This document shows, in pieces, positions 17,796 through 51,656 of a DNA stretch of 64,000 bases; the first letter of the stretch is position 1; every line of letters starts with the position of its first letter. The DNA is taken from the NCBI RefSeq assembly GCF_025949695.1, contig NZ_JAPDFL010000001.1:1739501-1803500 (forward strand), given 5' to 3'. The position numbers and the translations under genes were made by a program. The notes under the pieces were generated by a model. It worked only from the letters and a program-made list of their open reading frames with translations. It was not told where the DNA came from and did not search any database. This DNA comes from Pararhodobacter zhoushanensis. GTDB lineage: Bacteria > Pseudomonadota > Alphaproteobacteria > Rhodobacterales > Rhodobacteraceae.

Positions 17796-17807
17796 GCTTG
17801 CCTCTTG

Positions 17808-17836: not shown

Positions 17837-17864
17837 TTCCCTTTCGCGCACCCGAGGACGTGAC

Positions 17865-18377: not shown

Positions 18378-18378
18378 C

Positions 18379-34091: not shown

Positions 34092-34845
34092 ATGCAAGGA
34101 ATTCAGGGCGCCGTCGCGGTGGTGACAGGGGCTGCGCAGGGCAATGGACGCGCGATTGCGCTGGGTCTGGCCGCCGCGGGCGCGAAGGTTGCGTGCTGCG
34201 ATGTGCAGGGCGACGCGGTGCGCGAACTGGCTGCCCGAGATCATCGCCGAAGGCGGGCAGGCCATCGGCCTGACGCTGGACGTCACCGACCCCGGCTCTT
34301 GCGCGGCGGCGGCGCAGGCGGTTGCAGACGGCCTTGGGAACGCGGCGATTCTGGTCAATAACGCGGGCATCATCCGCCGCACCTTGCCCGACGCCGACAC
34401 CTTTGCGGCCGACTGGGACGCGGTGATCGCGGTCAATGCCACCGGCACGATGCAGATGATCCGCGCCTTTCTGGCCCAGTTGCGCGCCACCAAAGGGCGC
34501 ATCGTCAACCTTGGCTCGATCATGTCGGTGACGGCGGGACCGGGGCTGGCGGCCTATGCCGCATCCAAGGGCGCGGTGCTGCAACTGACCAAGGTGCTGG
34601 CGCATGACCTTGCCCCGGATGGCATCCGCGTCAACGCGATTGCGCCCGGCGTGATCGAGACCCCGATGACCGAAGTGACCCGCGCCGATCCCGACGCGAT
34701 TGGCCGCTTCATGGCCCATACCCCGCTGCGCCGTCCGGGCCGCCCCGAGGAGCTGGTCGGACCGGTTCTGTTCCTGGCCTCGGACGCGTCGAGCTACATG
34801 ACGGGCGCGTTGCTGCCCGTCGATGGCGGCTATCTGGCCGCGTGA
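34092..34845 (+). CDS. SDR-family oxidoreductase with a one-base frameshift
   Basis: Short-chain dehydrogenase/reductase. The first part, in frame with ATG 34092, gives AVAVVTGAAQGNGRAIALGL and DVQGDAVRELAA. The rest lies one base on: EIIAEGGQAIGLTLDVTD, ILVNNAGI, the catalytic GSIMSVTAGPGLAAYAASKGA and DGGYLAA at the end. Removing one C from CCC at 34234-34236 yields VRELAAEIIAEGG and a protein of 250 residues, the normal SDR length. The gene is therefore either damaged by a single insertion or misassembled. The stop overlaps or nearly touches the flavoprotein gene. Confidence 0.82.
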
Positions 34846-34859
34846 TCAAGGATAAGACG

Positions 34860-36569
34860 ATGAAACGACAAGAGGTTGATGTTCTGGTAATCGGCTCGGG
34901 CGCAGGCGGTCTGTCGACGGCAGTCGCAGCGGCACACCGGCGGCTGGACGTGCTGGTGGTCGAGAAAGAGCCGGTCTTCGGCGGTACCACGGCGCGTTCG
35001 GGCGGCTGGATGTGGATCCCCGGCAACGGGCCCGAGTTGCGCGCCGGGATCGAGGACAACGCCGAAAAGGCGCGGATCTACCTGCAGCACGAGGCGGGCG
35101 ACCATTTCGACGCCGAGCGCGTCGATGCGTTTCTGGAAGCTGGCCCCAAGGCGGTGACCTTCTTCGAGGAAAACACGTCGTTGCAGTTCGACCTTGGCCC
35201 GTTCTTTGCCGACTATCACCCCGATGCCCCCGGCGGCATGGACGGCGGGCGTTCCATCGTCGCGCGGCCGTTTGACGGGCGCGAGTTGGGCGACGAGATA
35301 AAGCGCCTGCGCCCACCGCTGCAAGAGATCACCTTTCTGGGCATGATGATCGGCTCGGGCAAAGAGCTGTTGCACTTTTTCAACGTGATGCGCTCGCCGG
35401 TCTCGGCGTTCTACGTCGCCAAACTGTTCTTCAAGTTCCTGCGCGATATGGCTTTTCATGGCCGCCCCATGCGCCTGATGAACGGCAACGCCCTGGCCGG
35501 GCGCTTGGCTAAATCTGCCTTTGACAAGAATATCCCGATCTGGACCCATGCCCCTGTCCGCGCCCTGTTGCGCGACGACGCGGGCAAGGTGATCGGCGCG
35601 CGGGTAGAGCGGCGCGATGGCCCGGTCGAGATCATCGCGCGCAAGGGCGTGGTGCTGGCGGCGGGCGGTTTCCCGCAAGACATGCTGCGCCGCAAGGAAC
35701 TGATGCCGCACGCGCCGACGGGCTATGAGCACGTCACGCCCGCCCCGCCGGGCAACACCGGCGACGGGCTGCGTCTGGGCGAATCAGTGGGCGCGGTGGT
35801 CGATACCTCGTTGCCGCATGCCGCCGCCTGGGTGCCGATCTCGCGCCCGGTCAAGGCGGATGGCACGCTGGGCACGTTCCCGCATTTCGTCGACCGGTCG
35901 AAACCCGGTGTCATTGCCGTGACCCGCTCAGGCCGGCGGTTTGTGAACGAGTCGAACTCGTACCACGACTTCTGTCAGGCGATGGTCAAGCGCTGCGCCG
36001 AGGAAGGCCCCGAGGGGGCCGAGCCCGCCGCGTGGTTCATCACCGATCACCGCGCGTTCCGCAAATACGGGCTGGGCTATGCCAAACCCGCGCCGGTGCC
36101 GTACAAGGCGCTGATCAAGAACGGCTACCTGCTGCGTGGGCAAACGCTGGCCGAGCTGGCGGCGCAGATCGGTGCCGATCCGGCGCAGCTGCAGCAGACG
36201 GTCACCGAGTTCAACGGCCCCGCCGCACGCGGTGAAGACCCGGCCTTTGGCAAGGGCACGACCAGCTACAACCGCTCGCTGGGCGATCCCGAGCACGGCC
36301 CGAACCCGTGTCTTGCGCCGATCAAGGACGGCCCGTTCTACGCCGTACGTCTGTATGTCGGCGATCTGGGCACCTTTGCGGGGCTCAAGACCAACGGCAA
36401 TGCGCAGGTTCTGGACGATCAGGGCAAGCCGATGGCCGGGCTCTATTCGGTCGGCAACGATGCGGCGTCGATCATGGGCGGGAACTATCCCGGTGGCGGC
36501 ATCACGCTGGGACCGGCCATCACCTTTGGCTACATCGCCGCGCGGCATATGTCGTCGGCGAATGACTGA
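34860..36569 (+). CDS. FAD-dependent oxidoreductase, 3-ketosteroid dehydrogenase/fumarate reductase-like
   Basis: Flavoprotein of 569 residues. FAD is held by VLVIGSGAGGLSTAVAAAH and VVEKEPVFGGTTARSGGWMWIPGN; the C-terminal SIMGGNYPGGGITLGPAITFGYIAARHM is the second FAD and active-site strand of the KstD/succinate dehydrogenase flavoprotein group. Such enzymes desaturate or saturate a bond next to a ketone. ATG 34860 is used; a GTG at 34842 overlapping the SDR stop is also possible. With the preceding SDR it could oxidise an alcohol to a ketone and then dehydrogenate the ring; this is inference. Confidence 0.88.
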   Translation: MKRQEVDVLVIGSGAGGLSTAVAAAHRRLDVLVVEKEPVFGGTTARSGGWMWIPGNGPELRAGIEDNAEKARIYLQHEAGDHFDAERVDAFLEAGPKAVTFFEENTSLQFDLGPFFADYHPDAPGGMDGGRSIVARPFDGRELGDEIKRLRPPLQEITFLGMMIGSGKELLHFFNVMRSPVSAFYVAKLFFKFLRDMAFHGRPMRLMNGNALAGRLAKSAFDKNIPIWTHAPVRALLRDDAGKVIGARVERRDGPVEIIARKGVVLAAGGFPQDMLRRKELMPHAPTGYEHVTPAPPGNTGDGLRLGESVGAVVDTSLPHAAAWVPISRPVKADGTLGTFPHFVDRSKPGVIAVTRSGRRFVNESNSYHDFCQAMVKRCAEEGPEGAEPAAWFITDHRAFRKYGLGYAKPAPVPYKALIKNGYLLRGQTLAELAAQIGADPAQLQQTVTEFNGPAARGEDPAFGKGTTSYNRSLGDPEHGPNPCLAPIKDGPFYAVRLYVGDLGTFAGLKTNGNAQVLDDQGKPMAGLYSVGNDAASIMGGNYPGGGITLGPAITFGYIAARHMSSAND

Positions 36570-38302: not shown

Positions 38303-38338
38303 CAGGATGGTTTGATCCTTCCCAACTGGGAGGACGCG

Positions 38339-38797
38339 ATGATTCTGGAGGATCTGAAGACCCGCATCGGGCAGGAACTGGGTGTCTCGCGCTGGCATCT
38401 GCTCGATCAGTCGCGCATCGACCGCTTTGCCGATGTGACCGAGGATTGGCAGGACATCCACGTCGATCCCGTCGCCGCCGCGCAGACCGCGTTCGGCGGC
38501 ACCATTGCGCACGGGTTCCTGTCGCTGTCGATGATCTCGGTGATGCTGTATGACGTCTGGGCCGATCTGGCGATCGCGGACATGGGCACTGGCGTGAATT
38601 ACGGCTGCGACCGGCTGCGGTTTCTGGCCCCGGTGCGCAGCGGTACGCGGATACGGGGCCGGTTTGTGCTGGCGGATGTGGTCGAAAAGCGGCCCGGCCA
38701 GTACCTCTTGCACACTGACATCAGGGTCGAGGCCGAGGGCAGTGAGCGCCCGGTGCTGGCGGCGCGCTGGCTGAGCCTGATCTACCGCAAGGGTTAA
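38339..38797 (+). CDS. MaoC-like (R)-specific enoyl-CoA hydratase
   Basis: Hotdog-fold hydratase of 152 residues. The hydratase 2 motif appears as DWQDIHVDPVAAAQTAFGGTIAHGFL, with aspartate and histidine as the catalytic pair. The protein is close to the NodN/MaoC group. It ends the SDR-flavoprotein-EamA-IclR run (36-base gap from iclR, GGGAGG before ATG 38339). It could hydrate the enoyl-CoA made by a dehydrogenase or serve the CoA-ester chemistry of the next operon. The first MarR-type box of that operon begins 32 bases after its stop. Confidence 0.9.
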   Translation: MILEDLKTRIGQELGVSRWHLLDQSRIDRFADVTEDWQDIHVDPVAAAQTAFGGTIAHGFLSLSMISVMLYDVWADLAIADMGTGVNYGCDRLRFLAPVRSGTRIRGRFVLADVVEKRPGQYLLHTDIRVEAEGSERPVLAARWLSLIYRKG

Positions 38798-38828: not shown

Positions 38829-38878
38829 GTTGACATGACAACACGTTTCCGCAACAACAGTCGTGTTGACATAACAAC
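38829..38878 (+). promoter_or_regulatory. Two 14-bp palindromic boxes in front of the demethylase operon
   Basis: GTTGACATGACAAC (38829-38842) and GTTGACATAACAAC (38865-38878), start to start 36 bp. Each contains TTGACA, a perfect -35 hexamer, so binding would occlude the promoter. A third copy, GTTGACAAAACAAC on the minus strand, lies before livK at 47904-47917. The MarR protein encoded at the far end of the livK operon is the natural candidate to bind them. Confidence 0.75.
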
Positions 38879-38982
38879 CAAACGCGCGTTCCATCACCGT
38901 CCGAGGAGGAGCTCTGGTCCCGACCAGACACGGCGATGAGACAAGGCCACCGCGCGCACGGCCCCGGAGGAGGATGACCAAG

Positions 38983-40434
38983 ATGACCCAGACCACTGCC
39001 CCCAAGTCGCTGAGCGATCTGCTGTCGCAGGTGCCCAGCGTGACCGATCACCTGTTCCGCAACGCCCCCAAGAACGCGCTGACCATCTACACGCAGATGA
39101 TGCCCGGCGACGGCGTGCGCCCTGAATTCACCACCTGGCGCGACGAACAATGGGCCTGGCGCAACACCATCGCGGTGCATGACCAGAGCTATCACATGCA
39201 GTCGCTGCACGTGCGCGGCCCCGATGCGCTGGCCTTCACGCAATACCTGTCGGTCAACACGTTCAAGAACTTCGGCATCGGCGCTGCCAAGCAGCTCGTC
39301 TGCTGCTCGCCCGAGGGGTATCTGATCGGCGATGCGATCCTCTACCGCATGGCCGAGGATGACTACATGGTCGTCGGTAACCCGGCGACGACCGAATGGG
39401 TCGAATACAACGCGCAGGCGCTGGATTATGACGTCACCACCGAGCTGGACGCGATGTGGACGCTCAACCCGGCCAAAAAGCGCGAATTCTACCGCCTGCA
39501 GGTCGAAGGCCCGCGCGCGTGGGAGCTCTTGGAAGAGCTGAACGGCGGCCCATTGCCCGAAATCAAGTTCTTCAAATCGGCCGAGATCAACCTCGGCCAG
39601 TTCAAGGCGCGCGGCATGCGGCACTCGATGGGGGGCATGCCGGGGCTGGAAATCTATGGTCCTTGGGCAGATTACAAGGACGTCAAACGCCTGCTGCAAT
39701 CGGCGGGCAAGAAATACGGCCTGCGCATGGTCGGCTCGATCGCCTATTTCACCACCGTGATCGAAAGCGGCTGGTGGGCGGTGCCGGTCTCGGCGGTTTA
39801 CACCGGTGACGGGATGAAGGGCTACCGCGACTGGTGCTCGGCCAAGAACGCCGCGATGCGCATGTCGCTGGGCGGCAGCTTCTACAGCCCTGATATTCAG
39901 GACTATTACCTGACGCCCTATGACGTGAATTACGGCCATATCATCAAGTTCGACCACGACTATATCGGCCGTGCCGCGCTGGAAGCGATGAAGGATCAGC
40001 CGCACCGCAAGAAGGTGACGCTGGTGTGGAACGCCGATGATGTGCTGGCGGTCATGCAGTCGCAATTCGAGGATGCCGAGGGCGACAAGCCGCTGCCGAT
40101 CACCCTGCCTTTGGCCGCCGCCGGGCGCATGCACTACGACCGCGTGACCGACACCGAGGGCAATACCATCGGTCTGGCCACCTATCCGGGCTATACCGCG
40201 AATGAGCGGGCGATGATGTCGCTGGCCTCGCTCGATGCCGGGTTCACCGAGCCGGGCACCGAAGTGGTTCTGCTCTGGGGTGAGGATGGCGGCGGCGACC
40301 GCAGCGCCGGCAACATCGAAAAGCACCGCCAGGTCAAGATCCGCGCGACTGTTGCGCCCAGCCCGATCAGTCAGGCGGCGCAAAGCTACCGCACCGACAT
40401 TGGCGTCAAACGCGGCTCGACGCTGGACGTGTAA
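38983..40434 (+). CDS. LigM/DesA-like tetrahydrofolate-dependent O-demethylase (GcvT family)
   Basis: GcvT/aminomethyltransferase-fold protein of about 483 residues. EFTTWRDEQWAWRNTIAVHD, GGMPGLEIYGPW, GGSFYSPDIQDYYLTPYDV and IIKFDHDYIGRAALEAM correspond block by block to LigM (vanillate/3-O-methylgallate demethylase of Sphingobium) as I remember it. The AYxxxxxESGW block keeps a tyrosine (residue 255 here) where LigM has its catalytic tyrosine. These enzymes pass a methyl group from a methoxy-aromatic to THF. ATG 38983 or 38974 are both possible behind GGAGGAGG. It heads the operon with CoA ligase, thioesterase and GFA genes. The true substrate is unknown. Confidence 0.85.
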   Translation: MTQTTAPKSLSDLLSQVPSVTDHLFRNAPKNALTIYTQMMPGDGVRPEFTTWRDEQWAWRNTIAVHDQSYHMQSLHVRGPDALAFTQYLSVNTFKNFGIGAAKQLVCCSPEGYLIGDAILYRMAEDDYMVVGNPATTEWVEYNAQALDYDVTTELDAMWTLNPAKKREFYRLQVEGPRAWELLEELNGGPLPEIKFFKSAEINLGQFKARGMRHSMGGMPGLEIYGPWADYKDVKRLLQSAGKKYGLRMVGSIAYFTTVIESGWWAVPVSAVYTGDGMKGYRDWCSAKNAAMRMSLGGSFYSPDIQDYYLTPYDVNYGHIIKFDHDYIGRAALEAMKDQPHRKKVTLVWNADDVLAVMQSQFEDAEGDKPLPITLPLAAAGRMHYDRVTDTEGNTIGLATYPGYTANERAMMSLASLDAGFTEPGTEVVLLWGEDGGGDRSAGNIEKHRQVKIRATVAPSPISQAAQSYRTDIGVKRGSTLDV

Positions 40435-40441
40435 GCACAGT

Positions 40442-40468
40442 GCCCCGTCCGGGGGAGCCGGGCGGGGC
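40442..40468 (+). terminator. Intercistronic hairpin after the demethylase gene
   Basis: An 11-bp stem with one G-U pair (GCCCCGTCCGG / CCGGGCGGGGC) and a 5-base loop lies between the demethylase stop and the ligase ribosome-binding site. It probably gives a higher mRNA level for the demethylase than for the genes behind it. Confidence 0.6.
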
Positions 40469-40489
40469 CATCTGCGGGGAGGAGAGATC

Positions 40490-41911
40490 ATGACACATCC
40501 CACTAACCGGGCCGAAGAAACCCGGCGCGCCTGGCATGGCGTGCTGGAGAAATATCTTGAGGACCGCTCGACACCGCTGAACGCGCAGTACTGGTCGCCG
40601 ATGGACACCTGGTCGCGCGACCAGATCCGCGCGGTTCAGGATGAGAAAATCGCCTCGGTCGCGCCGTTTCTCTATGAGAACAGCGATTTCTACCGCCGCC
40701 GGTTTGACGGGCTGGGGCTGGCACCGACCGCGCTGAAATCGGTCGATGACCTGATCGCCAAATGGCCGGTGATCACCAAACAAGAGATGATGGAAGACGC
40801 CATCGCCCATCCGCCCTTTGGCACCTATACCGCCTGCGGGCCGGACGAATGGGCTGACCGGGGCTGGATGCATTTCTCGTCCTCGGGCTCGACCGGGGTG
40901 CCGCGCGTGTTCCGCTACACCCATTTCGACCGCAAGTTCTGGGAGCAGGCCAACGCCCGCGCGCTCTATTCCGGTGGCCTGCGCAAGGGCGATACGGCAT
41001 TCCCGATGGTCGGCTTTGGCCCGCATGTGTTTGCGTGGGGCGTGCAATACACGCTGGCGGCGATGAACCTGCCGGTGATCCCCGGCGGCGGCATGGACGC
41101 GAAAGCGCGCGCGCATATCATCGAGCGGTTCAAGCCGACGACGCTGGTCTGCACGCCGTCCTATGCCTTCTACCTCGGCGGGGTGATGCGCGAGATGGGC
41201 CTCGATCCGGCTGCCAGCTCGGTCAAATGGCTCGTCACCGGGGGCGAGCCGTTCTCGGGCGTCGCCGGGACGGTCGAGAAACTGCAGGACCTGTGGGGCG
41301 CGATGTCGGTCGAGTTTTACGGCTGCACCGAGGTCAGCCCGCATTGCGGCGGCTACTCCTGCCCGGAATACCAGACGGGGGATGAGAATTTCATTCACCT
41401 GATGGAGGATATTCAGGTCTGGGAAACCGTCGATCCTGACACGCTGGCCCCGGTGGCCATGGGTGAAAAGGGCATCACCGTCTGCACCAACCTCAACAGC
41501 GAATCCTCGCCGCAGCTGCGTTTTCTGGTCGGCGACTACACCCGCCTGTCGGACGCGCCCTGCGCCTGCGGGCGCAATCATATCAAGGGCATGGGCTGCC
41601 TGACCGGGCGCTCGGACGATCTGATCAACCTGCGCGGCATCAAGTTCTTCCCGGTGCAGATCGAAGAGGCCGTGCGCGCGATCAAGGGAACGGGCGACGA
41701 ATTCCAGATCCGCCTGACCACGATGGACGACGGGCTGGACGTGATGACCGTGCTGGTGGAACACACCGATAGCGCCGTGGCCGATGTGGTGGCCAAGGAA
41801 ATCCGCTCGCGCTGCGAAATCCGCTGCGCGGTCGAGGTGCGCGCCCCCAACTCGCTGCCGAAATCGGAAATGAAGGCCAAGCGGGTTTACGACGAAAGGA
41901 ACAAGGGCTGA
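40490..41911 (+). CDS. PaaK-like aryl/acyl-CoA ligase
   Basis: Adenylate-forming ligase of 473 residues, related to phenylacetate-CoA ligase. Motifs: FSSSGSTGVPRVFRYTHFD (phosphate loop), VEFYGCTEVSPHCGG (A5), LVGDYTRL (A7), LTGRSDDLINLRGIKFFPVQIEE (A8) and PKSEMKAKRV near the C-terminal lysine. The cysteine-rich CACGRNH is common in this group. It differs clearly from the true PaaK at 57.6-58.9 kb. It would activate the acid released or used by the demethylase as a CoA ester. It overlaps the thioesterase start by one base and has a GGGGAGGAG ribosome-binding site. Confidence 0.9.
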   Translation: MTHPTNRAEETRRAWHGVLEKYLEDRSTPLNAQYWSPMDTWSRDQIRAVQDEKIASVAPFLYENSDFYRRRFDGLGLAPTALKSVDDLIAKWPVITKQEMMEDAIAHPPFGTYTACGPDEWADRGWMHFSSSGSTGVPRVFRYTHFDRKFWEQANARALYSGGLRKGDTAFPMVGFGPHVFAWGVQYTLAAMNLPVIPGGGMDAKARAHIIERFKPTTLVCTPSYAFYLGGVMREMGLDPAASSVKWLVTGGEPFSGVAGTVEKLQDLWGAMSVEFYGCTEVSPHCGGYSCPEYQTGDENFIHLMEDIQVWETVDPDTLAPVAMGEKGITVCTNLNSESSPQLRFLVGDYTRLSDAPCACGRNHIKGMGCLTGRSDDLINLRGIKFFPVQIEEAVRAIKGTGDEFQIRLTTMDDGLDVMTVLVEHTDSAVADVVAKEIRSRCEIRCAVEVRAPNSLPKSEMKAKRVYDERNKG

Positions 41912-42360
41912 TGCTGTCGAGCACCCTCAAACGCCGCGTGGAATGGGGCGATTGCGACCCCGCCGGGATCGTCTTCAACCCGCAGTTCTTTCGCTGGTTC
42001 GACCACGGTACGACCATGCTCTATGAGGCCGCAGGCTGGCCCAAGCAGGAGATGCTGGCGCGCTTCAACGCCGCCGGTTGCCCGCTGGTCGATACCCGCG
42101 CGATCTTCAAGGCACCGTGCCGCTATGGCGATGATGTCGAGATCACCACCGAGATCGCCGAAATCAAGGACCGCAGCTTTGACATCCGCCACAGTCTGAC
42201 CAAAGACGGCAAGCTGTGTGTCGAGGGGTTCGAAACCCGCGTCTGGACCATCAAGGACCCTGAGCGCGGCTTGAAATCCGCGCCGATCCCGGCTGAACTG
42301 GTGGCGCGGTTCAGGGGGAGTGATGCAGGGACGCTGCCTGTGCGGGGATATTGCCTATGA
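41911..42360 (+). CDS. Hotdog acyl-CoA thioesterase (4-hydroxybenzoyl-CoA thioesterase type)
   Basis: Thioesterase of 149 residues. VEWGDCDPAGIVFNPQFFRWFDHGTT contains the aspartate (CDPAG) that serves catalysis in the 4-hydroxybenzoyl-CoA thioesterase family. It directly follows the CoA ligase, an arrangement that can release a product acid or recycle CoA from dead-end esters. The last 38 bases overlap the GFA gene in another frame, which is long for this window; a slightly shorter true C-terminus or a small sequence error is possible. Confidence 0.9.
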   Translation: MLSSTLKRRVEWGDCDPAGIVFNPQFFRWFDHGTTMLYEAAGWPKQEMLARFNAAGCPLVDTRAIFKAPCRYGDDVEITTEIAEIKDRSFDIRHSLTKDGKLCVEGFETRVWTIKDPERGLKSAPIPAELVARFRGSDAGTLPVRGYCL

Positions 42361-42799
42361 GGCGGATGGCCAGCCGGCAACGGTGACGGTCTGTCACTGC
42401 CGGTTCTGCCAAAGGGCCACGGGCGGGGCCTATCTGGTGGACGCGCTGTTCAGGCGCGACCACTTCCGCATCCTGCAGGGCGCGCCGCGCGTCTATGACC
42501 AGCTGTCCGAAGGTAGCGGCAACCTCGTGCATATCCAGTTCTGCGAGCGTTGCGGGACCAAGCTGTGGCTGGAGTTCCAACGCTTTCCCAATCTGGTCGG
42601 TATCTTCGCCGGCACGCTGGACGATCCCAACGCGTTTGACCGCAGCCCCGCACGCACGCATTACATCTTTGCCGATCAGGCGGCGGACTGGACGGTGATG
42701 CCCCCCGGCGCGCGGGTTTATCCCGGGGATACCGCGCACCCCGATGGCACCCGCGCGGTGCCGCTGTGTCTGGACGCGGTGCGGATCGTCGGCGCTTAG
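42323..42799 (+). CDS. GFA-family (glutathione-dependent formaldehyde-activating type) zinc protein
   Basis: Small zinc protein of 158 residues. Cysteines occur as GRCLCGDI, CHCRFC and FCERCG, the two zinc sites of the Gfa/CENP-V fold. Authentic Gfa speeds formation of S-hydroxymethylglutathione, but many family members have no proven role. Here it ends a demethylase operon, where formaldehyde or a methyl-derived C1 unit is expected, so a link with C1 disposal is attractive but unproven. Its stop overlaps the stop of the convergent marR gene by 4 bases. ATG 42323 follows a GGGGGAG site. Confidence 0.85.
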   Translation: MQGRCLCGDIAYEADGQPATVTVCHCRFCQRATGGAYLVDALFRRDHFRILQGAPRVYDQLSEGSGNLVHIQFCERCGTKLWLEFQRFPNLVGIFAGTLDDPNAFDRSPARTHYIFADQAADWTVMPPGARVYPGDTAHPDGTRAVPLCLDAVRIVGA

Positions 42800-43308
42800 T
42801 CCATCTGTGCCAGATTGCCGTGCATCTGGCGCATGACCTTCAGGAAGATTTCCAGATCCTGCGGCTCGACCCCGCTGATCAGCGTGTTCTCGCGGTCCAG
42901 CGCGACGGCCAGCACCGCGTCATGCAGCGCATAGCCCTTGTCATTCAGCGCCCAGGTCCGGCGGCGGATGTCCTGTTCCGAGATCTCGTGATCCAGAATG
43001 CCCTGTTCCGACAATTTGCTCAGCGAGCGGCTGGTCGCGGCCTTGTCCAACTCGACAACCTGACAAATGCGCGCGGCGGCGATCCACGGCTCGATCGCCA
43101 GCATCGAAATCACCCGCCAGTCAACAATGCCGATGCCGAAACGCTCAAGGTACAGCTGCGAGGCGCCACGCGACAGCTTGTTGTTCACCGCCGACAGGAA
43201 ATAGGGCGTGTACTGGTTGATGTCGACGACCGGACGGCCATTGCGTTCGGTCGTCGGGCTGGAAATCCGCGCCTCGGGGCAGGTTTGGGCCGGGGTCTTG
43301 TCGGTCAC
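42796..43308 (-). CDS. MarR-family regulator at the end of the livKHMGF operon
   Basis: MarR-type regulator of about 170 residues. The winged-helix core LYLERFGIGIVDWRVISMLAIEPW, KAATSRSLSKLSEQG and EQDIRRRTWALNDKGYALHD is paralogous to the MarR at 13.1 kb. GTG 43308 has AGGGA upstream; a TTG further up (43353) would overlap livF and is less likely. It lies 41 bases behind livF, so it is expressed from the livK promoter, which carries the same 14-bp box as the facing demethylase operon. That wiring predicts autoregulation plus control of both operons. Confidence 0.9.
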   Translation of the reverse strand: MTDKTPAQTCPEARISSPTTERNGRPVVDINQYTPYFLSAVNNKLSRGASQLYLERFGIGIVDWRVISMLAIEPWIAAARICQVVELDKAATSRSLSKLSEQGILDHEISEQDIRRRTWALNDKGYALHDAVLAVALDRENTLISGVEPQDLEIFLKVMRQMHGNLAQMD

Positions 43309-43349
43309 GGTGCATCCCTGTCTGGTGCTCAAGGGCCCGTGCGCGGTGT

Positions 43350-44058
<709 letters not shown>

Positions 44059-44066
<8 letters not shown>

Positions 44067-44805
44067 GATGCGCTCCCAGATACAGATCGCGGACCTGTTG
44101 GTTGGCGGCGATGTCGGCGGGCGTGCCTTGGGTCAGGATCGCGCCATTGACCAGCACGATGATCGAGCGGGCGACCTGAAACACCAGTTTCATGTCATGC
44201 TCGATGATCAGCACGGCCAGATCGGCGGGCAAGGCCTCGATCGCGCCGGTGATCAGGTGGCTGTCGGACGAAGGCACGCCGGCGGCGGGTTCATCGAGGA
44301 TCAGCACGCGGGGTTTGAGCGCCAGCGTCATCGCCATCTCGACCAGCCGCTGCTGGCCATAGGCGAGGTCCTGCACCGGCTTGTCGGCAAGGGGCAGCAG
44401 GGTGAAGGCGGCAAGTTGTGCCTCGATCTCGGCCTCGATGCCCTTGTCGCGGTCCGCCCGGTGCCAGAACCGCAGCGCGCGGCGCTCGCGCTCAAGGATC
44501 GGCAGGCGGATGTTTTCGCGCACGCTCAGGTGCTTGAACAGCGTGGTGATCTGGAAGGTCTTGGCGATCCCGGCGCGCACCCGCGCGGCCTCGCCCAGCC
44601 CGCCGATATCGCGCCCGTCCAGCAGGATCTGCCCCGAGGTCGGTTTGAGGATACCGGTGATCAGGTTGGAGAACGTGGTTTTCCCCGCGCCGTTCGGCCC
44701 GATCAGCGCGGTGCGGTCGCCCGGTTGCAGGCTCAGCGTGATGTCGCGCGCGACGATCAGCCCGCCGAAGCTCTTGTTCAGCCCCTTGGTTTGCAGCCCC
44801 TTCAT
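44059..44805 (-). CDS. livG: Branched-chain-type ABC transporter ATP-binding protein LivG
   Basis: ATPase of 248 residues. Walker A GPNGAGKTTFSN, signature region DLAYGQQRLVEMAMTLAL, Walker B VLILDEPAAGVPSSD. The LivG-specific signature lacks the usual SGGE and has AYGQQR instead, as expected. It overlaps livF by 8 bases and livM by 4 bases. Confidence 0.94.
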
Positions 44806-45761
44806 TTGCCACCCCCGATCAGGCGCTTCAAAGCCGTGGGCACGCCCAGCAACCCTTTTGGCACAAAGAACACCACCCCCAGCACCAGCGCGCCGATGAT
44901 GAACAGCCAGTTAAACGGATCGACCGAGGCCGCCAGATGGTGCACGACCATGAAGATCACCGTGCCAATGATCGCGCCGTAAAGCTTCCCGGCCCCGCCA
45001 AGGATCAGCATGATCACCGCCTCGGCGCTGTGGGAGAAGTTGAAGACCTCAAGGCTGACCAGTTGCGTGATCTGCGCGGCCAGCGCGCCCGCGATCCCGG
45101 CAATCGCGCCGCCCAGCGTGTAGAGGATCAGGCGGCGCTGGTAGACCGGTGCGCCGATGGCCCGCATCCGCGCCGGGCTCTCATGGATGCCGCGCGCCAT
45201 CAGGCCCAGCGGCGAGGCTTTGAGCATTTTGAGCGCGAAGAGCACCACGAACAGCACGCAGCAGACATAGATATACCCGGTCTGCCCGATGAAATCGAAG
45301 CGCCACAGGCCAAGGATCGGGTCCATGCGGATACCGCGCATCCCGTCCGCACCGCCGGTCCAGTCGCGCGCGCGGTTGGCGATCTCTTGCAACACCAGCG
45401 CCACCGCGATGGAGAGCATGATCAGCGTCAGCCCCTCGGCGCGCATCAGCAAAAGGCCCGACAGGAAGGCAATCGCCGCCCCGGCCAGCATCCCCACGGC
45501 CAGCCCCAGAAGGGGGTCGCCGGAGAGATGGATCGCGAACAGCCCGGCTGCATAAGCGCCCGAGCCATAAAGCGCCGCCTGTCCCAGCGTGACGATGCCG
45601 CCAAGACCAAGGATCAGGTCAATCGACAAAACGAGGATCGCCATGATCACGATACGGGTCAGAAAGGCGAGGTCATACGGGAAGGCATAGAAGGCCGCGA
45701 CAGCCGCGATGATCAGCAGCGCATCGGCCAGCAGGCCCTTGGTGAGCGGGGTCAGTTTCAT
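44802..45761 (-). CDS. livM: Branched-chain-type ABC transporter permease LivM
   Basis: Membrane permease of 319 residues with eight to ten helices. The LGLGGIVTLGQAALYGSGAYAAGL segment and MARGIHESPARMRAIGAPVYQRRL (the E-x-x-x-R-x-x-x-x-G loop that contacts the ATPase) are typical of LivM. Its start overlaps the livH stop and its stop overlaps the livG start, so the subunits are translationally coupled. Confidence 0.93.
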   Translation of the reverse strand: MKLTPLTKGLLADALLIIAAVAAFYAFPYDLAFLTRIVIMAILVLSIDLILGLGGIVTLGQAALYGSGAYAAGLFAIHLSGDPLLGLAVGMLAGAAIAFLSGLLLMRAEGLTLIMLSIAVALVLQEIANRARDWTGGADGMRGIRMDPILGLWRFDFIGQTGYIYVCCVLFVVLFALKMLKASPLGLMARGIHESPARMRAIGAPVYQRRLILYTLGGAIAGIAGALAAQITQLVSLEVFNFSHSAEAVIMLILGGAGKLYGAIIGTVIFMVVHHLAASVDPFNWLFIIGALVLGVVFFVPKGLLGVPTALKRLIGGGK

Positions 45762-46621
45762 GCGTGGCCCCGTCCCATCAGCCCGTGCGGGCGCAGTGTC
45801 AGCAAAAGCATCATCACCGCGTAAAAGGCGATGGTGCCGAAATCGGGCACCAGATAGCGCGCGGCGGTGTCCAGAATGCCCAGACCCAGCGCCGCGACAA
45901 ACGACCCGGTGATCGAGCCCATGCCGCCCACGGCGACCACGGTCAGGAACAGCACCATGTAGCGAAGGGGATAATAGGCATCGATCGGCAGCAGCTCAGC
46001 CCCCAACGCGCCCCCCAAAGCGGCAAGCCCGGCGCCCAACATGAAGGTCAACGCGTAGATGGCGGCGGTGTTGATGCCCAGCACCGAGGCCGTCGCGCGG
46101 TGGTCCACAGCGGCGCGCAGGCGGATGCCGAAGCGGGTGCGCTCGATCAGCAGATACAGGAACGCAATCACGATCAGCCCGGCGATGATCACGACGATGC
46201 GGTGATAGGGCAGGGTGCGAAAGCCCAGATCCAGCGCGCCGCGCAGCAGCGGCGGGGTCGGGATCGCCAGGATTGTGGACCCAAGCCACAGATTGACCGA
46301 GGCGATCATCAGAAACGCGATGCCGATGGTGGCCAGCACCTGCTGCAGCTCTCCCATCCGGTAGATGCGCTGATAGAGCAGCCGCTCCAGCGGCAGGGCG
46401 ATCAGCATGGTGGCGGCCACGGCCAGCGCCATCGCCGACCAGTAGCCCAGCCCTGCCGCGATCAGCCAATGCGCCAGCGCGCCGCCCAGCATGGCAAAGC
46501 CGCCATGGGCCAGATTGATCACCCGCATCAGACCCATCGTCACCGACAGCCCGACCGAGATCATGAACAGGATCATGCCATAGGCAATCCCGTCCACCAG
46601 AATGGAAAGTAACGTGTTCAT
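45758..46621 (-). CDS. livH: Branched-chain-type ABC transporter permease LivH
   Basis: Membrane permease of 287 residues. It opens with ILVDGIAYGMILFMISVGLSVTMGLMRVINLAHGGFAM, the invariant LivH signature, and later has RTRFGIRLRAAVDHRATASVLGIN for the cytoplasmic coupling loop. It is separated from livK by a 57-base gap containing a hairpin and overlaps livM by 4 bases. Confidence 0.94.
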   Translation of the reverse strand: MNTLLSILVDGIAYGMILFMISVGLSVTMGLMRVINLAHGGFAMLGGALAHWLIAAGLGYWSAMALAVAATMLIALPLERLLYQRIYRMGELQQVLATIGIAFLMIASVNLWLGSTILAIPTPPLLRGALDLGFRTLPYHRIVVIIAGLIVIAFLYLLIERTRFGIRLRAAVDHRATASVLGINTAAIYALTFMLGAGLAALGGALGAELLPIDAYYPLRYMVLFLTVVAVGGMGSITGSFVAALGLGILDTAARYLVPDFGTIAFYAVMMLLLTLRPHGLMGRGHA

Positions 46622-46640
46622 GCAATGCTTCCGCCGGTGA

Positions 46641-46666
46641 GGGGCCGCCCTTTCGCGGGCGGCCCC
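46641..46666 (-). terminator. Intercistronic hairpin between livK and livH
   Basis: Perfect 10-bp stem GGGGCCGCCC / GGGCGGCCCC with a 6-base loop, directly after the livK stop. It fits partial termination or 3' protection to raise binding-protein dose. Confidence 0.72.
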
Positions 46667-46678
46667 GGGGTCAGGGCG

Positions 46679-47845
46679 TTACTGGCTCAGGCCGAGATCC
46701 GGCACAGCCTCGATCGTGGCAATCTCGCGGTTGATCAGGCGACCGTTCTCGTCGTGGTCAACTTCGCGGATATAGACGTTCTGGGTGATGTGGCGGGTAA
46801 CGGGGTCAATCGACACCGGCCCGCGCGGGCTTTCCCAGGCATAGCCACGGGCCGCTTCGATCGCTGCCGGGCCATCGCTGCCCGCCATTTCGACCATGTG
46901 GTAGATCAGCGCAGCGCCGTCATAGGCCCCGACCGAGGCCAGGTTCGCCACGCTGTCAGGATACATCTCGGCCAGCATCGTGGTGAACGCGTGGTTCATC
47001 TCGGAGTCATGCGCAGCCGAGTAGTGATAGGCGGTGTGCAGCCCCAGCGCCTGATCGCCCAGCGCGTCGAGCGTGGTTTCGTCCGTCTCGCCCGTCCCAA
47101 GGAACGTGATCCCGGCGGCCTGCAGGTTGTTCTCGTTATACGAACGGGTGAAGGCGTAGGTGGGCGGACCGGCGGGCAGGAAACCGAAAACGGCCTGCGG
47201 CGACTGATCGCGAACGCGCTGCATGAAGGGTGCGAAATCGGTGGTCGAGATCGGCATGCGGATCTGGTCCAACACAGTCCCGCCACCGGCCTCAAAGGCC
47301 GAACGGAAGGCGTTCTCGGCGTCGATGCCGGGGCCATAATCGGTCACAGCCGTAACCGCCGTGGTGATCCCCTGCTCAAGTGCCCAGTCGGCCATCGGCA
47401 CCGTCACCTGCCACAGCGTGAAGCCGGTGCGCACGAAGTATTCGGACTGCTGGGTGATGATCGACGTCGCGGCGTTGAAGATCACGCCGGGCGTTTCCGA
47501 CTGCGTCAGCAGCTCGGCCACGGCCAGCGCGTTGGGCGTAAACACCAGCCCGCCGATATAGTCGACCTGCTCGCGGATCAGCAATTCCTGCGCCATCGCC
47601 CGCGACTGATCGGGGTTCGGCCCGCCCGAGTCCCGGTACAGGAACTCGATCGTGTGATCGCCGACCTCGGTGCCGTTCTGGGCCTGAAAGACCTCGATGG
47701 CTTGCTGGAACTGTTGACCCCAGATCGCGAAGGGGCCGGAAAGCGGGGCGATGACACCGACCCGGATGGTATCTGCCGGTGCGCTGCCTGCCATCAGGGC
47801 AAGCAGGATCGGCGCGGCCAGAAGCCGCTTTGATGGTGTGTTCAT
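46679..47845 (-). CDS. ABC transporter solute-binding protein, LivK-type
   Basis: Periplasmic binding protein (Peripla_BP_6) of 388 residues. The signal peptide runs to about residue 26 (MAGSAPADT). IRVGVIAPLSGPFAIWGQQ begins the mature fold, and YRDSGGPNPDQSRAMAQELL and EYFVRTGFTLWQ follow. ATG 47845 lies behind GGGAGGACTTC; a long in-frame region upstream is a shadow of the demethylase-like gene. Its promoter carries the 14-bp MarR-type box overlapping a TTGACA element. The family binds amino acids, amides and aromatic acids; the pairing with demethylase genes points to an aromatic or methylated acid. Confidence 0.92.
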   Translation of the reverse strand: MNTPSKRLLAAPILLALMAGSAPADTIRVGVIAPLSGPFAIWGQQFQQAIEVFQAQNGTEVGDHTIEFLYRDSGGPNPDQSRAMAQELLIREQVDYIGGLVFTPNALAVAELLTQSETPGVIFNAATSIITQQSEYFVRTGFTLWQVTVPMADWALEQGITTAVTAVTDYGPGIDAENAFRSAFEAGGGTVLDQIRMPISTTDFAPFMQRVRDQSPQAVFGFLPAGPPTYAFTRSYNENNLQAAGITFLGTGETDETTLDALGDQALGLHTAYHYSAAHDSEMNHAFTTMLAEMYPDSVANLASVGAYDGAALIYHMVEMAGSDGPAAIEAARGYAWESPRGPVSIDPVTRHITQNVYIREVDHDENGRLINREIATIEAVPDLGLSQ

Positions 47846-47903
47846 GAAGTCCTCCCAATGTCTGCGGTCGCTGACCGTTGACGATTTCAGCATGGCGGAT
47901 CGA

Positions 47904-47917
47904 GTTGTTTTGTCAAC
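47904..47917 (-). promoter_or_regulatory. 14-bp MarR-type box in the livK promoter
   Basis: On the minus strand the site reads GTTGACAAAACAAC, matching the two boxes before the facing demethylase operon at 12 to 13 of 14 positions. TTGACA inside it is a consensus -35; CATGCT about 16 bases further can serve as -10. It lies 59 bases before the livK start. Confidence 0.72.
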
Positions 47918-47937
47918 ACATATCTTGCCGCTCTGGT

Positions 47938-49209
47938 TCAGTAGGAAGCGCGCCGGTTGTCTTGCTTGAAAGGGGCCTGCGCGATGGTTGCGCGGATGGC
48001 GATCTGGGGTCTGCCGGGCGCTCCCCACAGCACGCTGACCGCGCTGCCGATCTCGGCCTCGGCGACATCGATGGTGGCCAGCGACAGCATTTCGCGGAAG
48101 GAATACGAATACCCGCGCGAGGTGGTCGCGCCGATGTCCCGCCCGTCCTTCATCACCCGGTCGCAATACATGAACCCGCGCTGATCCCGGGGCATTTCCA
48201 TCCAGTCGTAGGGCAGGCCTTCCTTTTGGAACAACGAGGTATAGACCGTCGACACATCCTCGGGATTCCACACCAGCGTGCGGATCACCCGGCGCGGGTT
48301 GGCCTTTTCTTCGGCCAGCGCGTCCCGCCCGATAAAGTCGTGACCCAGATGGATGCGATTGGCCCAGCCCAGCTCGACCGGGCTGCGATACCAGTCGGAA
48401 ATCCGGCCGCCTTCAAAGCTGCCCGCAACGTTGAAGGTCGAGGCAAAGGCAGGCAGGGCCGCGCGGAATTCATCCAGATAGGCCTGCATCGACGGCTCGA
48501 AAATCGCCGGCAGATAGTCGGTGACGATGGTGGGAAAACACGCCTCAAGATGGTTGATGAACGCGGTGCGCCCGCCCAGCCGCCGGATGCCGACGTCACG
48601 CCCGGCCTCGAGAATCGCCGCGTACACCTCGGCGCTGCGGTTGATGTCGCCTTGCAGTTCGAACCCCAACTCGCCCGCCATGCCTTGGCGCAACGCCAGC
48701 ACCTTGCAGCCGGCGATGGTGATATGGCCGTTGTGCATGAACTTCACGTCGCGCAGCGACTGGCCGCTGGCCTTTTCCACGACATGGATCGCGTCCGGCC
48801 CCTGAACCTGAAAATTGAACCAGTCGTCGGCCTGCGATTGCACGTTGTACGATCCATGCCGCAGCTTGTGGTCCACCCAGAAGGTGCCGCGCCCGAACAG
48901 CATGACCTCATCGTCGCTGAGCCGGGTCAACACGCCCTCGGCGATGATCTTGCCGGACTCCTCGGTGTGGATCACGTGCTTGGACTGGTCGATGGCGAAG
49001 TTGTCGAAATTGTTCACCGACACGTCCGAGAACAGCTTCAACACATCCGGCCCCCGGAACCGGCGCTCCCACAGGAACGACCAGTCACCGATGTAACAGC
49101 CCTCTTTCCACGACAGGCTTTCGTCCTGCCAGTCGGTGTATTCGGGCTGCCCCCAGCGCGTGGTGAAATAGCCTTCGGGCGTGCGCCGAAGGGTCTGCAG
49201 GTCAGTCAT
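47938..49209 (-). CDS. GcvT-family demethylase-like protein, LigM paralogue lacking the catalytic tyrosine
   Basis: GcvT-fold protein of 423 residues. YTDWQDESLSWKEGCYIGDWS, RQGMAGELGFELQGD, DWYRSPVELGWANRIHLGHDFIGRDALAEE and RTLVWNPEDVSTVYTSLFQKEG parallel the protein at 39.0-40.4 kb and LigM, but it is about 60 residues shorter. In the block where the first protein has GSIAYFTTVIESGW, this one has GGRTAFINHLEACF: phenylalanine replaces tyrosine. It is preceded by a gntR gene in one transcript and followed by the livK promoter. It may use another substrate, such as a methylated non-aromatic acid, or be an accessory subunit. Confidence 0.82.
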   Translation of the reverse strand: MTDLQTLRRTPEGYFTTRWGQPEYTDWQDESLSWKEGCYIGDWSFLWERRFRGPDVLKLFSDVSVNNFDNFAIDQSKHVIHTEESGKIIAEGVLTRLSDDEVMLFGRGTFWVDHKLRHGSYNVQSQADDWFNFQVQGPDAIHVVEKASGQSLRDVKFMHNGHITIAGCKVLALRQGMAGELGFELQGDINRSAEVYAAILEAGRDVGIRRLGGRTAFINHLEACFPTIVTDYLPAIFEPSMQAYLDEFRAALPAFASTFNVAGSFEGGRISDWYRSPVELGWANRIHLGHDFIGRDALAEEKANPRRVIRTLVWNPEDVSTVYTSLFQKEGLPYDWMEMPRDQRGFMYCDRVMKDGRDIGATTSRGYSYSFREMLSLATIDVAEAEIGSAVSVLWGAPGRPQIAIRATIAQAPFKQDNRRASY

Positions 49210-49247
49210 GACCGCCTCCTTGTTGTCAGATCAGGTTTGGTGCGGCC

Positions 49248-49979
49248 TTAGCCGTCGGTGCCCGCAGCCACCCAAGGGATCGCGTGATCGCGGGCTTGCA
49301 GCAGTTCGAGGTAGCGCGCGGCGCAGAAGGAGTGCTCATGCGCCAGCGATTGCGCGCGCGCGCCATGGCCTTGCGCAATCGCCTCGACAATCGCGCGGTG
49401 CTGCTCTTGCGCCATGATCAGCACCTTCTTGACCGAGGCATGATCCAGCGCCAGCGATTGCACAAAGGCGTTGGGTGCGGCAAAGGGCAGCGCCTTGATC
49501 CGGTCGAGCGAGCGCGCGACCATGTCGCTGCCCGACGCCTCGATCAACAGGCGGTGAAATTCGTCGTTCAGGCGGACGTAATCGCTTTGGTCCACATCCG
49601 CCGACAGGTTGCCGACCACATCGTCCAGTTCGGCGACGCAGGCGCGCATCCGCATCAGCAGCGCCTTGGGCACCGTGCCCTCGGCGGCATAGCGGGCGGC
49701 AAGGCCTTCCAGCGTGCCGCGGATCTCGATGGCCTGAAAAATGTCCTGCGCGCTATAGGCCTTGACCGCAAAGCCCGAGGTTTCGCGGCGCTCCAGCAGT
49801 CCCTCTTCCGCCAGTTGCGCCAGCGCGGCGCGGGCGGGGGTGCGCGAGACGCCGAAACGCTCGACGATCATCGGCTCGGCCACCCGCGCGCCGGGGGCCA
49901 GCAAACCGTCGATAATCAGCCCGCGCAGGCCAAGCACGGCCCTGAGTGTCTGCGACTGGGTGTTGTCCTGGTCCTGCAT
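49248..49979 (-). CDS. GntR-family (FCD domain) transcriptional regulator
   Basis: Regulator of 243 residues. The winged helix is at the N-terminus (LRGLIIDGLLAPGARVAEPMIVERFGVSRTPARAALAQLAEEGLLER). An FCD effector domain follows, with EIRGTLEGLAARYAAEG, DYVRLNDEFHRLLIEASG and EQHRAIVEAIAQGHGARAQSLAHEH, whose aspartate and histidines would bind a metal. ATG 49979 has GGGAGG before it. It is followed 38 bases later by the LigM paralogue. Two CGTATACG palindromes upstream are probable operators. Confidence 0.92.
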   Translation of the reverse strand: MQDQDNTQSQTLRAVLGLRGLIIDGLLAPGARVAEPMIVERFGVSRTPARAALAQLAEEGLLERRETSGFAVKAYSAQDIFQAIEIRGTLEGLAARYAAEGTVPKALLMRMRACVAELDDVVGNLSADVDQSDYVRLNDEFHRLLIEASGSDMVARSLDRIKALPFAAPNAFVQSLALDHASVKKVLIMAQEQHRAIVEAIAQGHGARAQSLAHEHSFCAARYLELLQARDHAIPWVAAGTDG

Positions 49980-50033
49980 GGCGTCCTCCCTGTGCTGCAC
50001 GCTAGGGCGGCACAGGGAGGCCTGTCAACGATT

Positions 50034-50104
50034 CGTATACGGTTTTCAGCTATCTCGCGTAAATCTGTGCCTGTACTGCAGGCGAACCCATGAAAGCGTA
50101 TACG
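50034..50104 (-). promoter_or_regulatory. Two CGTATACG palindromes upstream of gntR
   Basis: CGTATACG occurs at 50034-50041 and again at 50097-50104, each beside a T/A-rich flank (GGTTTTC and TTTTTGC). The 63-bp spacing is six helical turns. FCD-type GntR proteins bind short palindromes of this kind, so autoregulation of gntR-ligM2 is likely. The rest of the gap shows no gene. Confidence 0.62.
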
Positions 50105-50951: not shown

Positions 50952-51092
50952 GGGATAACCTTTTGGAACGAGGGAATAACTCGATAGGCATAGAGCCTGC
51001 CGTGCGTTGCCGGAAGAGGGATTCGGCGGCGTCGTGGAAATATCTTTTGACCCGGTAACGCTTTGTTCATGGCGCGCTGAAACGGTAGCGTG

Positions 51093-51656
51093 ATGTCACG
51101 CTATCATCGCCCTTTCGCCACCGGCGCCCGTGTCTTTTTCACCGTCTCCTTGGCGCAACAAGGGGGCGACCTGCTGCTGCGAGAGGTGGATCGCCTGCGC
51201 GCGGCAGTCGTGCAGACGCGCAACCAGCGGCCCTTTGGCATTGATGCGTTTGTCGTGCTGCCCGACCATCTGCATGCGTTGTGGACCTTGCCGCCGGGGG
51301 ACGGCGATTACAGCCTGCGCTGGGCGGCGATCAAGGCGCGCTTTTCGCGCGGGCTGGCGGTTGGCGCGCAGCGCGCCAGCCACGCGGTGCGGCGTGAAAA
51401 GGCGATCTGGCAGCGGCGGTTCTGGGAACACCACATCAGGGATGAGGCCGATTACGAGCAACACCTGCGCTACTGCTGGGGCGATCCGGTCGCGCATGGG
51501 CTGGTTGCGCGGGCGGTGGATTGGCCGCTGTCTTCGCTGCACCGCGACCTGCGGCGCGGCATGGTGCCGCCTGACTGGCTGATTGCCGGTGAAGGCGGGG
51601 TAGGGTGCGCTTCAGCGCACCGACTGCGCCTGCCGTTCCGCGATACGGTGCGCTGA
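51093..51656 (+). CDS. REP-associated tyrosine transposase (RAYT, IS200/IS605-like Y1 family)
   Basis: Y1 transposase-like protein of 187 residues. FVVLPDHLHALWTLP carries the HUH-type metal-binding histidines. The helix with the nucleophilic tyrosine fits DEADYEQHLRYCWGDPVAHGLV, and WQRRFWEHHIRD is the typical RAYT block. RAYTs are single-copy relatives of IS200/IS605 transposases that act on REP hairpins marked by a GTAG tetranucleotide. Such a REP pair lies at the gene's 3' end, and its right arm even contains the stop codon. ATG 51093 (GTG 51090 also possible) has no strong ribosome-binding site. Confidence 0.9.
   Translation: MSRYHRPFATGARVFFTVSLAQQGGDLLLREVDRLRAAVVQTRNQRPFGIDAFVVLPDHLHALWTLPPGDGDYSLRWAAIKARFSRGLAVGAQRASHAVRREKAIWQRRFWEHHIRDEADYEQHLRYCWGDPVAHGLVARAVDWPLSSLHRDLRRGMVPPDWLIAGEGGVGCASAHRLRLPFRDTVR

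What the first reader, a model, noticed from the sequence alone, without database searches (positions are those of the whole stretch)
38829..50104. Candidate undescribed regulon: facing demethylase/CoA-ligase and livKHMGF-marR operons with a shared 14-bp operator
Seen: GTTGACATGACAAC and GTTGACATAACAAC before a LigM-like gene, and GTTGACAAAACAAC before livK, each overlapping TTGACA. The plus operon is demethylase, PaaK-like ligase, hotdog thioesterase, GFA protein; the minus operon is livK-H-M-G-F-marR, and the two stop codons overlap. Known: LigM/DesA use THF to remove methyl groups from methoxy-aromatics; MarR proteins bind such palindromes; GFA proteins are linked to formaldehyde. Inference: import, demethylation and CoA activation of a methylated or methoxylated acid under one autoregulated MarR. 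I know of no described pathway with this gene set.
Basis: partly seen in the sequence, partly recalled or inferred. Interest (0 to 1): 0.85.

Follow-up and report, generated by a model that had tools for sequence, protein, structure and literature searches.

The report
MarR regulon for methoxy-acid uptake
Two convergent gene clusters in a Pararhodobacter, one for importing an acid and one for demethylating and activating it, share a 14-base switch that is kept in relatives from two genera, so they very probably form one small regulon, probably for a methoxybenzoate-like compound that is still unidentified.

Summary
The window (Pararhodobacter, 4.65 Mb) has exactly three GTTG-N6-CAAC sites: two 36 bp apart before a LigM/DesA-type demethylase (DesA1), one before livK. 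Relatives make the case: in the 7 sequences with the same marR-liv set all three positions keep a site, and 8 of 9 Maritimibacter sites carry GCAAC instead of ACAAC. DesA1 forms a clade apart from LigM and DesA (100/100), keeps LigM's catalytic Tyr position and stays below both equivalog cut-offs. LivK is 56% identical over 206 residues to R. palustris 4evs.

MarR control of ligM (DesR) and MarR plus GntR control around a THF demethylase (A. fabrum) are published; this Liv/PaaK-like/4HBT set I did not find. Raw motif counts genome-wide do not exceed a reversed control. Substrate and binding are untested. A paralogous MarR with its own operator pattern and a P450 occurs in the same 6 of 18 genomes of the genus as desA1.

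The parts
38829..38842 (+). MarR operator O1 (GTTGACATGACAAC) before desA1
   Evidence: site kept in 9 of 12 related loci
38865..38878 (+). MarR operator O2 (GTTGACATAACAAC), 36 bp from O1
   Evidence: spacing 36-37 bp in the same 9 loci
38974..40434 (+). desA1: THF-dependent aryl O-demethylase-like protein, separate clade
40490..41911 (+). PaaK-like acid-CoA ligase
   Evidence: PaaK model 220.8 bits, cut-off 646.3; best PDB match 2-hydroxyisobutyryl-CoA synthetase
41911..42360 (+). 4-hydroxybenzoyl-CoA-thioesterase-like hotdog protein
   Evidence: 4HBT_2; best PDB match 5wh9
42323..42799 (+). GFA/CENP-V domain protein (GTG start at 42320 also possible)
   Evidence: PF04828, 105.5 bits (scanned as 42320-42799)
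42796..43353 (-). marR, proposed repressor of both operons (orthologues suggest that the start is the GTG near 43308)
43350..44066 (-). livF-type ABC ATPase
44059..44805 (-). livG-type ABC ATPase
44802..45761 (-). livM-type permease
45758..46621 (-). livH-type permease
46679..47845 (-). livK-type substrate-binding protein
   Evidence: closest PDB sequences 4evs, 4f06, 4ey3
47904..47917 (-). MarR operator O3 (GTTGACAAAACAAC) before livK
   Evidence: kept in 6 of 6 loci with the orthologous marR-liv set
47938..49209 (-). desA2: divergent LigM/DesA-family protein lacking the catalytic Tyr; accessory
49248..50000 (-). FCD-family GntR regulator (likely ATG start 49979, after GGGAGGA)
50034..50041 (.). 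GTATAC palindrome (CGTATACG), proposed GntR operator
   Evidence: published Atu1419 operator core (PMC7797058)
50097..50104 (.). second GTATAC palindrome (CGTATACG)

Best explanation
A MarR-repressed catabolic regulon. Without inducer, MarR (42796-43353) occupies GTTGACANNNCAAC at O1/O2 (before desA1-paaK-4HBT-GFA) and at O3 (before livKHMGF-marR) and so shuts off both operons and itself. A methoxylated aromatic acid, most likely a methoxybenzoate, is taken up by LivKHMGF; DesA1 moves its methyl group to tetrahydrofolate; the PaaK-like ligase makes the hydroxyaryl-CoA; the 4HBT protein recycles or releases CoA; ring opening is encoded elsewhere (a benzoyl-CoA box pathway is one candidate). Shown: the sites, their conservation and joint change, gene order, families, clade. 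Inferred: MarR binding, repression, inducer, substrate, reaction order. On top lies an accessory module, gntR-desA2, with GTATAC palindromes; by the Atu1419 precedent this GntR would sense methylene-THF, i.e. one-carbon load (inference).
For: In window, L009, L011, L013, L016, L019 and L052 all three positions keep a site; in the livK promoter alignment of these 7 the long invariant blocks are the site and the ribosome-binding/start region. In Maritimibacter 8 of 9 sites carry GCAAC for ACAAC. In L010, L012 and L014 another MarR (37-41%) and another, divergent liv operon replace the set, yet paired sites remain before desA1, and GTTGACANNNCAAA stands before the new liv operon in 3 of 3. The motif also lies between a MarR homologue (31-35%) and a divergent P450-like gene in 7 of 13 motif regions fetched from other genomes of the family (the P450 family was confirmed by scan for L107 and L109 only); the recognition-helix core DKxAxSR is invariant in 17 aligned MarRs. 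L015, L017 and L018 lack the sites; L017 has a TetR gene beside desA1. LivK: 415 bits to 4evs, 56% identity over 206 residues. DesA1 keeps the LigM Tyr. boxB in 7 of 7 desA1+ genomes tested and 2 of 5 desA1- congeners; 62 of 295 in the family.
Against: No binding, expression or growth data. Exact and one-mismatch motif counts do not exceed the reversed control in the genome (8 against 9 with one mismatch), and in the family 51 of 295 genomes have an exact match against 57 (hand count) for the reversed control. No -10 found. boxB in the genus, 6 of 6 against 2 of 5, is only p = 0.06; G162, desA1+ without a paaK hit, lacks boxB; relatedness confounds it. Three relatives carry a thiolase gene in the operon (L012, L014, L052), which a plain benzoate route does not need. 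L017 and L018 have no paaK hit. A ligase and a thioesterase in one operon are not fully explained.
Confidence: 0.62

Rival explanations
1. The regulon is real but the acid is not a benzoate: it is a methoxylated phenylacetate, phenylpropanoid or arylpyruvate, with the PaaK-like ligase and, in some relatives, a thiolase doing side-chain chemistry.
For: PaaK-family ligase; thiolase between desA1 and paaK in L012, L014 and L052 (scanned for L012 only); indolepyruvate-oxidoreductase-like gene within 7 kb of desA1 in L015 and L019 (the L015 copy gave only a TPP domain in Pfam); a MaoC-like hydratase gene (38312-38797) ends 31 bp before O1 on the same strand in the window, and its homologue lies likewise in L009.
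Against: LivK is far closer to 4evs/4f06 (415 and 410 bits) than to 3ukj and 3tx6 (24 and 22 bits), which I recall as coumarate-type binders. No hydratase or dehydrogenase lies between O1 and the end of the plus operon, and the MaoC gene was found near desA1 in L009 only of the 12 relatives. The thiolase is absent from most of the 12, and its best homologue in the own genome is 31% identical.
Confidence: 0.25
2. This is an ordinary vanillate/syringate system (LigM/DesA with a DesR-type MarR).
For: Same protein family, a MarR regulator, and a site containing TTGACA, as the SYK-6 ligM site overlaps the -35 region (PMC6888825).
Against: DesA1 scores 496 of 800 (DesA) and 451 of 580 (LigM) and falls in its own clade. 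The genome has a LigM over the cut-off elsewhere (L135, 612.7 over 580). The published DesR sites are GTTTGTGTCACATAC and GTTTGTGTAACATAC, not this motif.
Confidence: 0.1
3. The three 14-mers are chance or generic -35 boxes and the two operons are not co-regulated.
For: Genome-wide and family-wide counts near the reversed control; TTGACA is the -35 consensus.
Against: Same positions and 36-37 bp spacing before desA1 in 9 of 12 loci, site before livK in 6 of 6, joint change in Maritimibacter, loss in L015, L017 and L018.
Confidence: 0.03

Closest known systems
DesR regulon of Sphingobium sp. SYK-6 (MarR; PMC6888825: abstract, outline and passages seen)
   Same: MarR repressor of a THF-dependent O-demethylase gene (ligM) and of itself; short inverted repeat overlapping the -35 region of ligM
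   Different: Sites GTTTGTGTAACATAC-type; the targets named in the abstract are desB, ligM and desR, with no Liv transporter, CoA ligase or thioesterase. Orthology of the two MarRs was not tested.
Agrobacterium fabrum SpG8-1b hydroxycinnamate region (HcaR/MarR plus Atu1419/FCD-GntR; PMC7797058: passages seen)
   Same: MarR and FCD-GntR both serve a pathway with a LigM-type demethylase; GntR operator ATGTATACAT, core GTATAC, in three copies
   Different: There the pathway is feruloyl-CoA conversion to vanillate and protocatechuate; here a Liv importer plus PaaK-like ligase and no feruloyl-CoA enzymes in the two operons
LigM / DesA THF-dependent aryl O-demethylases (PDB 5x1i, 5tl4)
   Same: Family, length, catalytic Tyr position kept in DesA1
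   Different: DesA1 is a separate clade with GSIAYFTT in place of GSRAYPSN around that Tyr; DesA2 lacks the Tyr
R. palustris binding proteins 4evs, 4f06, 4ey3 (organism and benzoate-type ligands recalled, not checked here)
   Same: LivK is similar along nearly its whole mature length, 301-415 bits
   Different: Ligand of the window LivK unknown

Membership tests
LigM/DesA THF-dependent aryl O-demethylase | GCV_T domain and full-length similarity to LigM | tested here: met
   PF01571 134 bits; LigM 390 bits over query residues 47-470
LigM/DesA THF-dependent aryl O-demethylase | LigM catalytic Tyr (Tyr247; number and role recalled, a catalytic Tyr is also named in PMC9296663, passages) | tested here: met
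   Tyr in DesA1 and its 12 clade members; Ala in DesA2, so not met for DesA2
NCBIfam equivalogs DesA (NF047633) and LigM (NF047885) | score over the curated cut-off | tested here: not met
   DesA1 496 of 800 and 451 of 580; DesA2 262 and 256
LigM/DesA THF-dependent aryl O-demethylase | methyl transfer from a methoxyaryl acid to THF | not testable with these tools
   needs an enzyme assay
DesR-type regulon | published operator GTTTGTGTMACATAC | tested here: not met
   conserved sites are GTTGACANNNCAAC
DesR-type regulon | orthology of the MarR protein | not tested
   DesR sequence not at hand; no MarR homologue over 55 bits in the 48 other loci with LigM/DesA-family genes, many of them short
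Autoregulated MarR regulon | same inverted repeat before the marR operon and the target operon, conserved in relatives | tested here: met
Autoregulated MarR regulon | binding of the MarR to the repeat, released by an aromatic ligand | not testable with these tools
   needs gel shift and reporters
Atu1419-type FCD-GntR | FCD domain and GTATAC palindromes before the gene | tested here: met
   7 of 15 gntR genes found near LigM/DesA-family genes have GTATAC near their start, all 7 at least 43% identical to this one; the 8 without are 38-41%
Atu1419-type FCD-GntR | effector N5,N10-methylene-THF | not testable with these tools
   inferred from PMC7797058; sequence similarity to Atu1419 itself was not tested

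The most novel reading that the evidence does not exclude
Pararhodobacter carries two paralogous MarR circuits with orthogonal operators that share out methoxylated aromatic acids between two demethylation chemistries: MarR1 (DK helix, GTTGACANNNCAAC) runs a THF-dependent, CoA-coupled pathway with a new DesA1 subfamily of unknown specificity, and MarR2 (NK helix, GTTTAATTNNNAAC, 43% identical) runs a cytochrome P450, a dihydroxyacetone kinase and a TRAP importer. A third, GntR layer reads the one-carbon load released by demethylation.
Probability: 0.2. Interest if true: 0.75.

Novelty: new variant of a known kind. Interest (0 to 1): 0.55.

Why it matters
It names a separate, conserved clade of THF-dependent demethylases together with its importer, CoA ligase, thioesterase and regulator, so the substrate can be found by testing one small gene set. 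The operator is precise enough to look for further targets, and the two paralogous MarRs with different recognition helices and operators are a ready test of how MarR specificity diverges. The GntR layer would show whether sensing of methylene-THF is common to folate-dependent demethylation.

Tried and rejected
Rejected: chance motif, although raw counts do not separate it from the reversed control. Rejected: canonical LigM or DesA. Weak: a 2-hydroxyisobutyrate route suggested by the ligase's best PDB match (202 bits, against 191.6 for a PaaK entry); no mutase gene in the operon. Six of the 13 fetched motif regions (L113, L115-L119) hold single sites with no MarR hit and look like chance; of the 7 with a MarR, 5 have two exact sites, L112 one exact and one with a mismatch, L114 one. 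Plasmids: desA1 relatives at E below 1e-60 all under 60% identity (74 records). Phenylacetyl-CoA epoxygenase is in 12 of 12 genomes; the gentisate dioxygenase model matches in 10 of 12 but passes its cut-off in 1: neither discriminates. A P450 structure was asked for three times and never ran. The P450's resemblance to CYP199 is recalled; what a call shows is 50% identity to unnamed plasmid P450s. A pattern for closely paired GTATAC sites gave no match in the own genome. Papers: searches for homarine, MarR with O-demethylase, LigM (twice), R. palustris transporters, the operator letters, Rhodobacteraceae and Pararhodobacter listed no paper that I recognised as describing this gene set; I opened four papers, and most subscription papers are not held.
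Full report
Place. The window lies in a 4.65-Mb genome close to Pararhodobacter zhoushanensis: DesA1 is 99% identical to that in L009.

Observation. The three 14-mers and the genes are as described. GTTG-N6-CAAC occurs three times in 64 kb, at exactly these places; GTTGACANNNCAAC, a pattern loosened after seeing the relatives, has 3 matches against 0.02 expected. In the genome GTTGACANNACAAC has 4 exact matches: these three and one inside an ORF of L001. As a bare count this is not impressive: the reversed control gives 2 exact matches, and with one mismatch the counts are 8 and 9. In the family sample 51 of 295 genomes have an exact match, and 57 by my hand count of the rows have one to the reversed control. 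Conservation and placement must carry the argument.

Footprint. Of 60 loci found with DesA1, 12 are close relatives (67-99% identity). In L009, L011, L013, L016, L019 and L052 the set desA1-paaK-4HBT (plus strand) and marR-livFGMHK (minus strand) is kept, with two sites 36-37 bp apart before desA1 and one before livK. In the livK promoter alignment of these six and the window the long invariant blocks are GTTGACA, CAAC and the ribosome-binding/start region; in the desA1 promoter alignment the sites line up in the ten rows that have them. Of the nine sites of the three Maritimibacter loci, eight read GCAAC where Pararhodobacter reads ACAAC, and five are exactly GTTGACATCGCAAC. In L010, L012 and L014 the regulator is another MarR (37-41%) and the transporter another, divergent liv operon, yet paired sites remain before desA1, and GTTGACANNNCAAA stands before the new liv operon in all three. 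L015, L017 and L018 have no site; L017 has a TetR gene beside desA1, and L015 a similar ORF some 7 kb away that was not scanned. So 9 of 12 loci have paired sites before desA1. GFA was found in L009-L014 and not in L015-L019 or L052, so it is not core.

Regulator family. In 13 motif regions fetched from other genomes, 7 have the motif between a MarR homologue (31-35%) and a divergent gene with a P450-like start (L107-L112, L114); a family scan was made for L107 and L109 only, and both are P450s. The other 6 have single sites without a MarR hit. In the alignment of 17 MarRs the recognition-helix core DKxAxSR is invariant. The PDB matches of the L109 P450 begin with three other P450s (290, 165 and 146 bits), followed by entries of a P450 aromatic O-demethylase at about 127 bits.

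Enzymes. DesA1 belongs to the LigM/DesA family (390 bits to LigM), scores below both NCBIfam cut-offs, and with 12 relatives forms one clade at 100/100 apart from the LigM and DesA-type rows (the tree tool warns that long branches meet, so the sister group is unsure). It keeps LigM's catalytic Tyr position with a different surround (GSIAYFTT). DesA2, 92 bp upstream of livK, has Ala there and a stem of 3.06 changes per column; of the 12 relatives only L009 has it and gntR beside livK. The genome has six LigM/DesA-family genes plus one weak partial match. Of five scanned, one, L135, passes the LigM cut-off (612.7 over 580; L136 was not scanned); it lies beside its own gntR with GTATAC sites. The substrate here is therefore unlikely to be plain vanillate.

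Substrate. LivK gives 415, 410 and 301 bits to 4evs, 4f06 and 4ey3 and 56% identity over the 206 residues compared with 4evs; I recall these as binders of benzoate derivatives, and no call checked that. The hotdog protein is closest to a 4-hydroxybenzoyl-CoA thioesterase, 5wh9. The ligase is PaaK-type but below the PaaK cut-off (220.8 of 646.3). boxB is in 7 of 7 desA1+ genomes tested and in 2 of 5 desA1- congeners, against 62 of 295 in the family, where 3 of 4 desA1+ genomes have it and G162 does not. Within the genus the difference is p = 0.06 (6 of 6 against 2 of 5). boxB is also in 6 of the 7 genomes with the MarR-P450 pair (G186 lacks it; p about 0.0004, relatedness ignored). A methoxybenzoate going to a hydroxybenzoyl-CoA is my first choice; the thiolase gene in L012, L014 and L052 and the MaoC-like gene just upstream of O1 in the window and L009 keep side-chain substrates open.

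Second circuit. gntR (ATG probably at 49979) has two CGTATACG palindromes 56 and 119 bp upstream. GTATAC occurs 3 times in the window, two of them here, against 0.91 expected, which alone proves little. Atu1419 of A. fabrum binds ATGTATACAT, represses a LigM-type gene and is released by N5,N10-methylene-THF (PMC7797058, passages). Of 15 gntR genes found near LigM/DesA-family genes, 7 have GTATAC near their start. Sensing of one-carbon load is inference.

Known or new. DesR, a MarR, represses ligM, desB and desR in SYK-6 and needs GTTTGTGTAACATAC-type sites (PMC6888825; abstract, outline, passages). The logic is therefore known; this gene set and operator were not found in my paper searches.

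Co-occurring paralogue. MarR2 (13113-13601, 43% identical to MarR1) lies beside ferredoxin, dihydroxyacetone kinase, P450 and TRAP genes. GTTTAATTGCAAAC stands before dhaK/marR2 and GTTTAATTAGCAAC before the P450 (the pattern was written after seeing them). Tried on the genus, the pattern hits 6 of 18 genomes including the own one, the same six that have desA1; each has a P450 orthologue and a MarR2 orthologue beside a site. The MarR2 helix reads MNKS-VSRS, not DKxAxSR. In the other five genomes the cluster lies on another contig than desA1. Common descent may still explain the shared presence.

Noticed in passing
window 12781-19695: Second MarR (43% identical to MarR1) with ferredoxin, dihydroxyacetone kinase, cytochrome P450 and TRAP transporter; candidate operator GTTTAATTNNNAAC at 13642-13655 and 15379-15392; the pattern is found in the same six genomes of the genus as desA1.
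   Followed up: partly
L107-L112, L114: MarR / divergent P450-like pair sharing the GTTGACA motif in 7 other genomes of the family; boxB present in 6 of the 7.
   Followed up: partly
L012 11538-12737, L014 11537-12736, L052 11454-12731: A thiolase gene (scanned for L012 only) sits between desA1 and paaK in three relatives.
   Followed up: partly
L133, L134, L135, L136: Four further LigM/DesA-family genes in the same genome; L135 passes the LigM cut-off and has its own gntR and GTATAC sites.
   Followed up: partly
L015 6139-8295, L019 3820-5970: Indolepyruvate-oxidoreductase-alpha-like gene (scanned by NCBIfam for L019) near desA1 in two relatives, with TRAP genes.
   Followed up: no
window 34842-36569: FAD-dependent oxidoreductase (PRK06134, 798.8 over 747), also resembling a 4-oxocyclohexenecarboxylate dehydrogenase (571.9 bits, cut-off 900), with IclR and MaoC genes upstream of desA1.
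   Followed up: no
window 51090-51656: REP-associated tyrosine transposase (159 bits, cut-off 80) close to the gntR end of the locus.
   Followed up: no
window 57550-58860: Canonical phenylacetate-CoA ligase PaaK (731.8 bits, cut-off 646.3) next to what look like further liv-type ABC genes at 59690-63005 (not scanned).
   Followed up: no
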